Below are positions 39,137-44,289 of a DNA stretch of 64,000 nt, piece by piece (position 1 is the first letter of the stretch; each line of letters begins with the position of its first letter). This stretch comes from Pseudomonadota bacterium (GTDB lineage Bacteria; Pseudomonadota; Gammaproteobacteria; Burkholderiales; Burkholderiaceae_C), in the NCBI GenBank assembly GCA_020161145.1, contig JAIUPQ010000004.1, positions 237,384 through 301,383 on the forward strand, in the 5' to 3' direction. A program made the position numbers and the translations under genes. The notes under the pieces were generated by a model. That model was not told the DNA's origin. It was given only the letters and a program-made list of their open reading frames with translations, and made no database searches.

Positions 39137-40240
39137 ATGGCCATCGAAGGCAAGACCATTGGGCTGGCGCTGTCGGGCGGCGGCTACCGCGCCACGCTGT
39201 TCGGGCTGGGCTCGCTCTGGCGGCTGAATGACGCCGGGCTGCTGGGCCGGCTGGACCGCATCACCAGCGTCTCGGGGGGCTCCATCCTGATGGGCGTGCT
39301 GGCCCACCGCTGGCGGCAGTTGCAGTTCATCGACGGGCGCGCCGACAACTTTGCCCAGGTGGTGGCCGAGCCCGTGCGGGCCTTCTGCGCCAAGACCATC
39401 GACGTGGGCGCGGGGCTGGCGGGGCTGCTGGTGCCATTCAAGACGGCGGGCGATTTTCTGGCCCACCGCTACGAGAAAGACCTGTTCGGCGAGGCGACCA
39501 TCAAAGGCCTGCCGCCGGCGGCGGCGGACACGCCCAAGTTCATCTTCTACGCCACCAATTTGCAAACCGGCCGCAGTTTCCGCTTCCGGCAAGACATGGT
39601 GGCCGACTACCTGCTGGGCGTCTCGTACACCACCGATGTGCCGCTGGCTGTGGCGGTGGCGGCGTCCAGTGCCTTCCCGCCCATCTTCTCGCCCGTGGTG
39701 CTCAAGACCGACCCGGCGGCCTGGAGCGAGGGCGGCAAGCTGCCCAACCTGACCGCGCTGCGCAAGCGCATCGTGTTGGCCGACGGCGGTGTCTACGACA
39801 ACATGGGGCTGGAGTCGCTGGTGGACAACGTGGACGTGGTGCTGGTCAGCGACGCCGGCGCGCCGTTCGAGGTGGAAGAAAAACCCCACGAAGACCACGT
39901 GCTGCAACTGGGCCGGGTGCGCGACATCCTCATCGACCAGACCCGCGCGCTGCGCAAACGCTGGCTGATTGCCGAGCTGGCGGCCGAGCGCAAGCGCGGC
40001 GCCTACTGGGGCATTGGCACGCAGTTGGCGGCCTACGGCAGCGCGCCGCGCATGACGGCCGATTCACCCATCAGCGACGCGCTGGAACACGTGCCCACCC
40101 GGCTGGCCGCGTTCGACGCCGAGCGGCAAGGGCATTTGATCAACTGGGGTTATGCGCTGTGCGACGTGTCGCTGCGGGCGCGGGTGGGCCTGCCCACGCC
40201 CATGGCGGCGGCCTGGCCGGTGCCTGAGTGGCCGCTGTGA
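39137..40240 (+). CDS. Patatin-like phospholipase
   Basis: A 367-residue patatin: oxyanion-hole GGGYR (14-18), nucleophile Ser about 46 in SVSGGS, and the catalytic Asp of the DGG motif (VLADGGVYDNMGLES) near residue 215. No signal peptide. Such enzymes hydrolyse membrane phospholipids and are frequent effectors in bacterial immunity. It is the first gene of a three-gene operon; its TGA overlaps the next ATG (TGATG). The strong GAGGGAGG ribosome site supports the start. A housekeeping lipase role remains possible. Confidence 0.92.
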   Translation: MAIEGKTIGLALSGGGYRATLFGLGSLWRLNDAGLLGRLDRITSVSGGSILMGVLAHRWRQLQFIDGRADNFAQVVAEPVRAFCAKTIDVGAGLAGLLVPFKTAGDFLAHRYEKDLFGEATIKGLPPAAADTPKFIFYATNLQTGRSFRFRQDMVADYLLGVSYTTDVPLAVAVAASSAFPPIFSPVVLKTDPAAWSEGGKLPNLTALRKRIVLADGGVYDNMGLESLVDNVDVVLVSDAGAPFEVEEKPHEDHVLQLGRVRDILIDQTRALRKRWLIAELAAERKRGAYWGIGTQLAAYGSAPRMTADSPISDALEHVPTRLAAFDAERQGHLINWGYALCDVSLRARVGLPTPMAAAWPVPEWPL

Positions 40241-43179: not shown

Positions 43180-44289
43180 ATGTCCGACCCCTTCATGCGC
43201 ATCGACATGCTGCCCGCGCTGCACGGCGACTGCCTGCTGCTGAGCTGGGGCGACGCGCGGCGCACCCGCCGCCTGCTGATCGACGGCGGCCCCATCGGCG
43301 CCTACGACGCGCTCGAGCAGCGGCTGGCCGCCTTGCCGGCGGGCGACCGGCGCTTCGAGCTGATGGTGCTCAGCCACGTGGACACCGACCACGTCGATGG
43401 CCTGGTGCGCCTGCTGGCCAACCCCCGGCCGTGGCCGTTCACCGTCAAAGACGTGTGGTTCAACGGCTGGCGCCATCTGGAGCCGGCGCATGGCCTGCTG
43501 GGCGGCAAGCAGGGCGAGTACTTCAGCGCCCTGCTGGCGCGCCGGCTGGACGACGGCGCCTGGAACGGCGCCTTCGACGGCGCGGCCGTGGTCGTGCCCG
43601 ATGACGGGCCGCTGCCCCAGCGCCGCCTGGCGGGTGACCTGACGCTGACGCTGCTGTCGCCCACGCCGGCCAAGCTGGCCAGGATGCGCAGCGCCTGGCG
43701 CAAAGACGTGGGCGACGCCATGGAGCCCGGCGACCTGGACGCCGCCTGGGCGCTGCTGGCCACGCAAAAGCGCTACCTGCCCGGCCAGGGGCTGCTGGGC
43801 GGAGCCGAGCAACTCGACCACCTGCTGGCCAGGCAGTCCAAGCCCGACAAGGCCGCGGCCAACGGCGCCAGCATCGCCTTTCTGGCCGAGTTTGGCGGCA
43901 AAAGCGCGCTGCTGCTGGCCGACGCCCACCCGGATGCCGTCTGCGCCTCGCTCCAACGCCTGCTGGCGGCGCGCGGGCAGCAGCGGCTGGCGGTGGATGC
44001 GGTCAAGGTGGCCCATCACGGCAGCAAAGGCAACACCACCGACGCGTTGATGGCCTTGATCGACAGCCCGCGTTTTTTGTTCAGCAGCAACGGCGCCCAG
44101 TTCGGCCACCCCGACCAGGAGGCCGTGCGCCGCGTCATTGGCCGCAGCGTGCACGCGCGTCCCACGCTGTACTTCAACTACACCAGCGACCACAACCGCG
44201 AGTGGGCATCGCCCGCGCTGCAGCGGGAGCTGGCCTACACCACGGTCTACGGCCCCGGCGAGGCAGGGCCGCTGGTGGTCGATCTGTAG
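43180..44289 (+). CDS. Metallo-beta-lactamase-fold hydrolase (ComEC/Rec2-like)
   Basis: A 369-residue MBL-fold protein: HVDTDHVDG (H66, D68, D70, H71), a later Asp in LLLADAHPDAV, and VAHHGSKGN with the final His, as in ComEC-type MBL domains. It has no membrane segments, so it is a soluble hydrolase, possibly acting on nucleic acid or a nucleotide/phosphoester. Strong ribosome site GGGAGG; 18 bases after the CHAT gene on the same strand. With patatin and CHAT it forms an apparent operon. Confidence 0.88.
   Translation: MSDPFMRIDMLPALHGDCLLLSWGDARRTRRLLIDGGPIGAYDALEQRLAALPAGDRRFELMVLSHVDTDHVDGLVRLLANPRPWPFTVKDVWFNGWRHLEPAHGLLGGKQGEYFSALLARRLDDGAWNGAFDGAAVVVPDDGPLPQRRLAGDLTLTLLSPTPAKLARMRSAWRKDVGDAMEPGDLDAAWALLATQKRYLPGQGLLGGAEQLDHLLARQSKPDKAAANGASIAFLAEFGGKSALLLADAHPDAVCASLQRLLAARGQQRLAVDAVKVAHHGSKGNTTDALMALIDSPRFLFSSNGAQFGHPDQEAVRRVIGRSVHARPTLYFNYTSDHNREWASPALQRELAYTTVYGPGEAGPLVVDL

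What the first reader, a model, noticed from the sequence alone, without database searches (positions are those of the whole stretch)
39137..44289. Patatin / CHAT protease / MBL-fold hydrolase operon: candidate undescribed defence or cell-death system
Three genes on one strand are coupled (TGATG between genes 1 and 2; 18 bases between 2 and 3). They combine a membrane-attacking lipase fold, a 973-residue caspase-like CHAT protease with intact His 840/Cys 883, a beta-sandwich and a Cys cluster, and a soluble ComEC-type MBL hydrolase. Each fold is known as an effector or processing enzyme in bacterial conflict systems, but I know no named system with exactly this trio. No cyclic-nucleotide synthase or TIR partner is present, so it is not CBASS or Thoeris. 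A working idea is that CHAT activates the patatin by cleavage and the MBL degrades an infection signal.
Basis: partly seen in the sequence, partly recalled or inferred. Interest (0 to 1): 0.85.

Follow-up and report, generated by a model that had tools for sequence, protein, structure and literature searches.

The report
Protease-gated DNase operon with a lipase
Three neighbouring bacterial genes look like a self-destruct switch in which a caspase-like protease would unlock a DNA-cutting enzyme, with a lipase as a likely second weapon; it resembles a recently described virus-defence design but uses a different protease and carries the lipase.

Summary
Window 39137-44289 carries a coupled patatin, a 973-residue protease and an MBL hydrolase, with the named residues intact. 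The protease model shows an unidentified N-terminal region, an Ig-like sandwich and a CHAT/separase caspase fold. The genes form a unit: in 36 fetched loci (three phyla) the MBL follows the protease in 34 of 34 assessable and a patatin precedes it in 24 of 33.

The key result is in the MBL. It has the ComEC nuclease fold plus two poorly predicted loops. Both carry an xLG motif, and the two motifs covary within proteins (44 proteins, z 6.7) but not with the patatin, the protease or the rest of the MBL. This is the mark expected of a protease-activated "gated" DNase, as published for Avs1, Hachiman and canu (PMC12799240).

Best reading: the CHAT protease cuts both gates and frees a DNase that kills or arrests the infected cell; the patatin is a second effector. 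"CHAT cuts patatin" and "MBL degrades a signal" lack support. Defence is inferred: a few relatives lie in a type I RM operon, beside NACHT/STAND-like genes, or carry TIR, but flanks show no general defence enrichment. New variant of a known kind.

The parts
39137..40240 (+). patatin-like phospholipase, 367 aa; GGGxR motif from residue 14, Ser46, Asp216 (DGG)
   Evidence: Pfam PF01734 58.8 bits; S46 and D216 kept in 25 of 25 aligned patatins
40240..43161 (+). CHAT/separase-type protease, 973 aa
   Evidence: AF2 model, fold searches; His840 in 29 of 29 and Cys883 in 28 of 29 rows of A5
40240..41499 (+). N-terminal alpha/beta region of the protease (residues 1-420), fold not identified
   Evidence: mostly well predicted; the listed solved-structure matches barely cover it
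41503..41895 (+). Ig-like beta-sandwich (residues 422-552)
41917..43158 (+). caspase-fold catalytic region (about residues 560-973) with His840 (42757-42759) and Cys883 (42886-42888)
42373..42456 (+). Cys cluster C712, C724, C728, C739 followed by PMGFWG
   Evidence: all four Cys in 29 of 29 rows of A5, though CPMGFWG was itself a search pattern; in A1, partly found by other routes, C712, C728 and C739 are in 7 of 7 and C724 is not
43180..44289 (+). ComEC-type MBL hydrolase, candidate gated pro-DNase, 369 aa; metal motif H66-x-D-x-D-H71, D248, H280
43480..43539 (+). candidate gating loop 1 (about residues 101-120) with candidate cut site GLLG|G, Gly108
   Evidence: pLDDT blocks 59 and 55; motif and covariation
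43720..43869 (+). candidate gating loop 2 (about residues 181-230) with candidate cut site GLLG|G, Gly207
   Evidence: pLDDT blocks 52-37, segment 200-229 under 50; motif and covariation
34771..36366 (-). AvcD-type anti-phage dCTP deaminase: neighbouring known defence gene, not part of the operon
   Evidence: NF041025 456.5 bits, cut-off 400; PADLOC dCTPase 543 bits

Best explanation
A protease-gated nuclease system with a lipase arm. In the resting cell the MBL protein is an inactive DNase precursor whose active site is covered by two flexible loops. On infection or another alarm, sensed by an unidentified route (perhaps the protease's N-terminal region), the CHAT/separase-type protease becomes active and cuts both loops at their matching xLG sites (GLLG|G, Gly108 and Gly207 in the window protein). 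The freed DNase destroys DNA, and the cell dies or stops growing before phage can spread. The patatin is a co-inherited second effector that attacks membrane lipids. Shown here: gene unit, predicted folds, two poorly predicted loops, matching covarying motifs, co-divergence. Inferred: the cut itself and its exact bond, the gating, DNase activity, the trigger, anti-phage function, the lipase's role.
For: (1) Protease and MBL stay together: MBL directly downstream in 34 of 34 assessable loci of 36; in all 5 genomes of the order that hold the protease (of 399; three of these contigs are also L018, L034, L035); and in 4 of 4 plasmid loci fetched of 5. (2) MBL = ComEC nuclease fold plus two low-confidence loops. 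(3) [LFYM]G at site 1 in 43 of 44 and somewhere in loop 2 in 43 of 44; own-protein match against permuted pairs z 6.74, p 5e-5 (n 44), z 6.28 for 13 representatives under 50% identity; for those 13, shuffled loop 2 reached the observed value 0 of 2000 times. No such signal against patatin, protease or the rest of the MBL. (4) Published precedent: partner proteases cut two gates of homologous MBL nucleases; in canu a caspase activates the nuclease, with conserved Gly in both loops (PMC12799240). (5) Distance matrices of 19 triads agree, r 0.835-0.965, 0 of 5000 permutations each. (6) Immune contexts: inside a type I RM locus (L041); with AAA+ and trypsin-NACHT/STAND-like genes (L044; NACHT and STAND matches below Pfam cut-off); TIR fused to the protease (L049); AvcD 2.8 kb from the window operon.
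Against: Flanks of 21 of 33 loci (114 proteins) gave few strong PADLOC matches beyond the RM genes of L041, hardly different from the control; no flank family recurs in more than 7 loci and those looked at are of ordinary kinds. No activity was shown. The protease profile has no detectable relation to canu-like CanA or CanB, though these profiles are shallow. The best-matching window in loop 2 is not always the xLG itself, and in the 24 patatin-bearing rows the loop signal is weaker (z 2.98). No patatin was detected in 9 of 33 assessable loci, two of them (L018, L019) close relatives of the window by MBL tree, so it is not essential to the core. L043 lacks the catalytic Cys.
Confidence: 0.62

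Rival explanations
1. The CHAT protease is the hub of a two-target cascade that cuts and activates both the patatin and the MBL.
For: A patatin is upstream in 24 of 33 assessable loci and its divergence tracks the protease, r 0.835 in 19 triads; a patatin lies divergently beside a canu-like locus in Sinorhizobium americanum.
Against: No covariation of the gate motif with the patatin: z -0.82, n 24; z -0.08 for 8 representatives. Few triads are divergent, so a weak signal, or a different cut motif, could be missed.
Confidence: 0.15
2. The patatin is upstream, not an effector: it makes or removes a lipid signal that controls the protease, and the MBL is the only executioner.
For: Protease-MBL pairs persist without a detected patatin (9 of 33 assessable loci), some with other upstream genes (trypsin, CarboxypepD-reg or SH3 proteins in Dokdonella and a Pseudomonadota MAG).
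Against: No sensor or lipid-binding evidence; patatins in bacterial defence are usually effectors (recalled, e.g. CapV).
Confidence: 0.15
3. Ordinary housekeeping: a lipid or envelope quality-control module with a processed hydrolase, unrelated to phage.
For: The flanks scanned show little defence enrichment; one scan of viral contigs for close relatives found none; some relatives are next to SH3 and CarboxypepD-reg proteins.
Against: Patchy distribution (1 of 16 genomes in the genus, 5 of 399 in the order), plasmid-borne relatives, RM, STAND-like and TIR contexts, and relation of the MBL to defence MBLs.
Confidence: 0.15

Closest known systems
canu caspase-nuclease system (KaeCanABC, PMC12799240)
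   Same: Caspase-fold protease encoded upstream of a ComEC-type MBL with two gating loops carrying conserved Gly; Ig-like domain in the protease; the MBLs of four canu-like plasmid loci lie in one unresolved neighbourhood with ours in the tree.
   Different: Protease is CHAT/separase-type, 973 aa, with no detectable profile match to the CanA- or CanB-position proteins of the four canu-like loci; Ig domain is N-terminal to the protease; no separate CanB gene; a patatin is coupled upstream. 32 CHAT-partnered MBLs, window included, form their own clade (99/99).
AVAST type 1 (Avs1a/b/c)
   Same: Related MBL (NCBIfam Avs1a 218.6 bits; PADLOC 5e-48); loops at the same places, with NPIS and KTIS in the Cupriavidus Avs1a row I aligned.
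   Different: Trypsin and STAND partners instead of a caspase-fold protease; MBL gene upstream; our MBL is below the Avs1a cut-off of 420 bits.
Hachiman HamMAB and MBL-type Lamassu/DRT
   Same: Gated MBL nuclease with a partner protease (published for Hachiman; by homology for Lamassu and DRT).
   Different: Protease is trypsin fused to HamA or LmuA; neither of our other two proteins matched such models.
TPR-CHAT Csx29 (Craspase) and SAVED-CHAT
   Different: RNA- or cyclic-nucleotide-controlled; their known targets are not an MBL nuclease (both recalled); no gRAMP or SAVED partner among the three genes.
Patatin effectors such as CapV of CBASS (recalled)
   Same: Patatin phospholipase as a presumed membrane-attacking effector.
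   Different: No cyclic-nucleotide synthase among the three genes.

Membership tests
canu (caspase-nuclease) | protease gene upstream of the MBL nuclease gene | tested here: met
   window; 34 of 34 assessable loci
canu (caspase-nuclease) | MBL with two gating insertions, each with a conserved Gly | tested here: met
   two loops with an xLG motif, poorly predicted; that they gate the active site is inferred
canu (caspase-nuclease) | CanA-type caspase domain (MALT1-like) | tested here: inconclusive
   caspase-clan fold, best matches separase and CHAT; profile comparison with four canu-like CanA-position proteins gave 0.15% probability with shallow profiles; KaeCanA itself not available
canu (caspase-nuclease) | Ig-like domain C-terminal to the caspase domain, as described for KaeCanA | tested here: not met
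   Ig-like sandwich is at 422-552, N-terminal to the catalytic region
canu (caspase-nuclease) | separate CanB gene, as in KaeCanABC (the paper calls canu loci variable) | tested here: not met
   18 bases between protease and MBL; no CanB-like match in the protease profile
canu (caspase-nuclease) | protease activates the nuclease and protects from phage | not testable with these tools
   needs the bench
AVAST type 1 | Avs1a equivalog score of at least 420 bits | tested here: not met
   218.6 bits
AVAST type 1 | trypsin-like and STAND partners | tested here: not met
   neither of the other two window proteins matches trypsin or STAND models; the relative L044 has a trypsin-NACHT/STAND-like gene
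CHAT protease | CHAT/separase fold with His-Cys dyad | tested here: met
CBASS with patatin effector | CD-NTase in the operon | tested here: not met
   no CD-NTase match among the three proteins
Lamassu | LmuB SMC-type ATPase | not tested
   the MBL matches PADLOC's LmuA model, but LmuB was not searched for

The most novel reading that the evidence does not exclude
A two-executioner death system built round a bacterial separase/CHAT protease: one arm is a pro-DNase unlocked by cutting two matching gates, the other a co-inherited phospholipase that ruptures membranes, so that infection triggers both DNA destruction and membrane attack. It would be a third protease branch (after trypsin and MALT1-like caspase) recruited to the same gated nuclease, with cut-site motifs evolving in step.
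Probability: 0.35. Interest if true: 0.75.

Novelty: new variant of a known kind. Interest (0 to 1): 0.6.

Why it matters
If true, the pairing of a gated DNase with a CHAT/separase protease shows that one nuclease chassis has recruited yet another protease branch. The covarying loop motifs would give a way to read each protease's cut preference from sequence alone. The recurrent patatin suggests a prokaryotic parallel to cell-death programmes that hit DNA and membranes together. Every step is testable with a three-gene operon in E. coli.

Tried and rejected
A scan of viral contigs with the protease (close relatives only) gave 4 pattern matches, none a relative. Pfam, PADLOC and NCBIfam have no model above cut-off for the protease. 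Relation of the protease to canu-like CanA or CanB by profile comparison: none detectable. The MALT1 fold did not appear among the rows shown for the protease model, which excludes nothing. CHAT cleavage of the patatin, or of itself, at a gate-like motif: no covariation. Defence-island enrichment: 114 flank proteins from 21 of 33 loci (111 of the 209 listed plus three genes inside operons; the Thauera and most Accumulibacter flanks were left out) against 62 of 76 control proteins listed, PADLOC at E 1e-20. Flank families shown were those of the L041 RM genes, RtcR-like CARF_AAA_HTH and PDC-M05 (one member each); the control gave RtcR-like and a weak pVip. Only 25 of 57 flank families were displayed, so a few may be missed. 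No clean empty site: four congeners lack the triad in the fetched stretch but also differ in the neighbourhood. Conserved neighbours beyond the triad: none in more than 7 of 33 loci. Patatin-less G270 has a patatin 45% identical to ours elsewhere in its genome; its context was not examined. Direct or inverted repeats framing the operon: none convincing. No paper describing CHAT, MBL and patatin as one system in the listings of seven searches of the held library; passages of PMC12419801 and PMC8195603 were not relevant. The supplement of PMC12799240, which may list other protease partners, could not be read.

Full report
What is there. The three genes are exactly as described: patatin 39137-40240, protease 40240-43161 with its ATG overlapping the patatin stop, MBL 43180-44289. 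The window lies in a 3.51 Mb, 13-contig genome. Only the patatin is recognised above cut-off by Pfam. The protease has no model above cut-off in Pfam, PADLOC or NCBIfam. The MBL matches PADLOC's LmuA (1e-65), Avs1a (5e-48) and RTasMBL (6e-36) models and NCBIfam's Avs1a at 218.6 bits, about half the cut-off of 420. It is therefore a distant member of the defence-linked ComEC-like MBL group.

Is it a unit? In 399 genomes of the order, 5 have the protease (own included). All five have the MBL beside it and four have the patatin. In one genome per species across GTDB (genome contigs), a scan for two exact protease motifs gave 36 loci from Beta-, Alpha- and Gammaproteobacteria, Bacteroidota and Acidobacteria; three of them (L018, L034, L035) are contigs already met in the order search. 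Two of the 36 contigs (L016, L045) end in or at the protease; in the other 34 of 34 the MBL follows. A patatin precedes the protease in 24 of the 33 loci with enough upstream sequence: adjacent, except that one small gene lies between in L036 and two genes in L044; in L021 and L049 only the end of the patatin gene matched. None was detected (tblastn with P0001, E 1e-4) in L018, L019, L038, L039, L040, L042, L045, L046 and L047; L017, L033 and L048 could not be judged. In the two Bacteroidota loci the patatin is a distant, 580-residue version. Pairwise distances of the three proteins in 19 triads correlate (patatin-protease 0.835, patatin-MBL 0.870, protease-MBL 0.965; 0 of 5000 permutations each). 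In its own genus the protease is in 1 of 16 genomes: patchy, as for a horizontally moving system. Relatives of the protease-MBL pair, without a patatin detectable by P0001 within the 8 kb flanks, occur on plasmids (5 records, 4 fetched).

The decisive observation here. In this family both loops carry an xLG motif: HGLLG and QGLLG in the window protein, DDILG and DDILG in L009, IESLG and VESLG in the canu-like L052, ADRLG and GDRLG in L012. From 53 MBLs collected (window plus 52 loci) I dropped three duplicates and one truncated row, and then five with other partners or contexts (L050 and L051 ABC-three-component, L056 Avs1, L057 S8 peptidase, L059 MoxR), leaving 44; L058, whose partner is unknown, stayed in. 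[LFYM]G is present at site 1 in 43 of 44 and somewhere in loop 2 in 43 of 44. The site-1 5-mer matches loop 2 of its own protein far better than loop 2 of other proteins: z 6.74 for 44, and 6.73, 6.78, 6.28 and 5.25 for 26, 19, 13 and 10 representatives under 70, 60, 50 and 45% identity; permutation p 5e-5 each, the lowest value possible with 20,000 permutations. For the 13, shuffling the residues of loop 2 never reached the observed value (0 of 2000). The best window in loop 2 is not always the xLG itself (for example in L041, L043 and L055). As controls, the same 5-mer shows no own-protein preference in the patatin (z -0.82, n 24), the protease (z -0.16, n 28) or the rest of the MBL (z -0.32, n 19); with the same 24 patatin-bearing rows the loop-2 signal is z 2.98. 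Two sites far apart in one chain that drift together are what one expects if a single, evolving protease pocket must accept both. That supports cleavage of the MBL and gives no support for cleavage of the patatin.

Relation to canu. Four plasmid loci with a 'caspase family protein', a second gene and an MBL (L052-L055) look like canu. One has a divergent patatin and one a DUF2235 gene beside it. Profile comparison finds no relation between the window protease family and their CanA- or CanB-position proteins (0.15 and 0.22% probability), with shallow profiles of 7 and 4 rows. In the MBL tree of 47 rows, 32 CHAT-partnered MBLs form a clade (99/99). The canu-like MBLs and five more CHAT-partnered ones lie in an unresolved neighbourhood, which also holds the ABC-three-component rows, and the Avs1a, S8 and MoxR rows lie outside (several long branches, midpoint root). 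So it works like canu by inference, but is not shown to be canu: no CanB gene, the Ig domain on the other side, and another branch of the caspase clan.

Is it defence? For: L041 (Lysobacterales) has the trio between hsdM-hsdS and Schlafen-type genes on one side and hsdR, whose open frame starts 3 bases after the MBL gene, on the other (2.5 kb without a called gene lie before the patatin). L044 (Paucibacter) has AAA+ and trypsin genes between patatin and protease; the trypsin gene also has NACHT and STAND matches below Pfam's cut-offs. L049's protease begins with a TIR domain (36.8 bits, cut-off 28). In the window an AvcD-type anti-phage deaminase is 2.8 kb away. Against: flanks of 21 loci show no general enrichment over a control, and the flank families shared by three or more loci that I looked at are of ordinary kinds. 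I rate defence as likely but inferred.

The patatin. Catalytic Ser46 and Asp216 are kept in 25 of 25. Its frequent, co-diverging but dispensable presence fits a second effector; a regulatory role is not excluded. Two loci close to the window in the MBL tree, L018 and L019, lack it.

Judgement. The feature is real and conserved. The mechanism proposed is a published one with a different protease and an added lipase: a new variant of a known kind. I found no description of this trio in the listings of seven searches of the held library, but the supplement of PMC12799240 may contain CHAT-type partners.

Noticed in passing
window 34771-36366 (-): AvcD-type anti-phage dCTP deaminase (NF041025 456.5 bits, cut-off 400) in a low-GC patch (0.55 at 34001-36000) between glmS and a thiolase.
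   Followed up: partly
window 38208-38778 (-): Two small overlapping genes that look like a DinJ/YafQ- or RelBE-type toxin-antitoxin pair (recalled resemblance, not searched).
   Followed up: no
L041 1716-17504: The patatin-CHAT-MBL trio sits inside a type I restriction locus (HsdM-S, Schlafen AlbA_2, trio, HsdR).
   Followed up: yes
L044 2816-12818: Paucibacter: patatin, AAA+ ATPase, trypsin with NACHT/STAND-like part, short CHAT protein and MBL on one strand, an Avs1-like mixture.
   Followed up: partly
L049 858-3098: CHAT protease with an N-terminal TIR domain (36.8 bits, cut-off 28) next to the gated-type MBL.
   Followed up: partly
L043 5306-8119: CHAT protein with the catalytic Cys replaced by Arg while His and the neighbouring patatin and MBL persist: possibly an inactive or regulatory version.
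   Followed up: no
L031 10001-13044: The CHAT gene of Ca. Accumulibacter phosphatis has a frame break near its 3' end (two overlapping tblastn pieces); left as found.
   Followed up: no
L052 2483-7062 and L053 2250-7092: Canu-like loci with a lipase-type gene beside them: divergent patatin in Sinorhizobium americanum, DUF2235 in Bradyrhizobium (that DUF2235 is lipase-like is recalled).
   Followed up: partly
L057 3917-7362: MBL directly downstream of an S8 (subtilisin-type) peptidase in Sinorhizobium meliloti: another possible protease partner for gated MBLs.
   Followed up: no
L050 and L051, MBL at about 6000-7080: Related MBL directly upstream of ABC-three-component genes (so annotated in L051; same layout in L050) on Enterobacterales plasmids, loops without the xLG motif.
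   Followed up: no
L042, L045, L047: Dokdonella and a Pseudomonadota MAG: upstream of the CHAT gene lie SH3, CarboxypepD-reg or trypsin-like genes (not all in each) instead of a patatin.
   Followed up: partly
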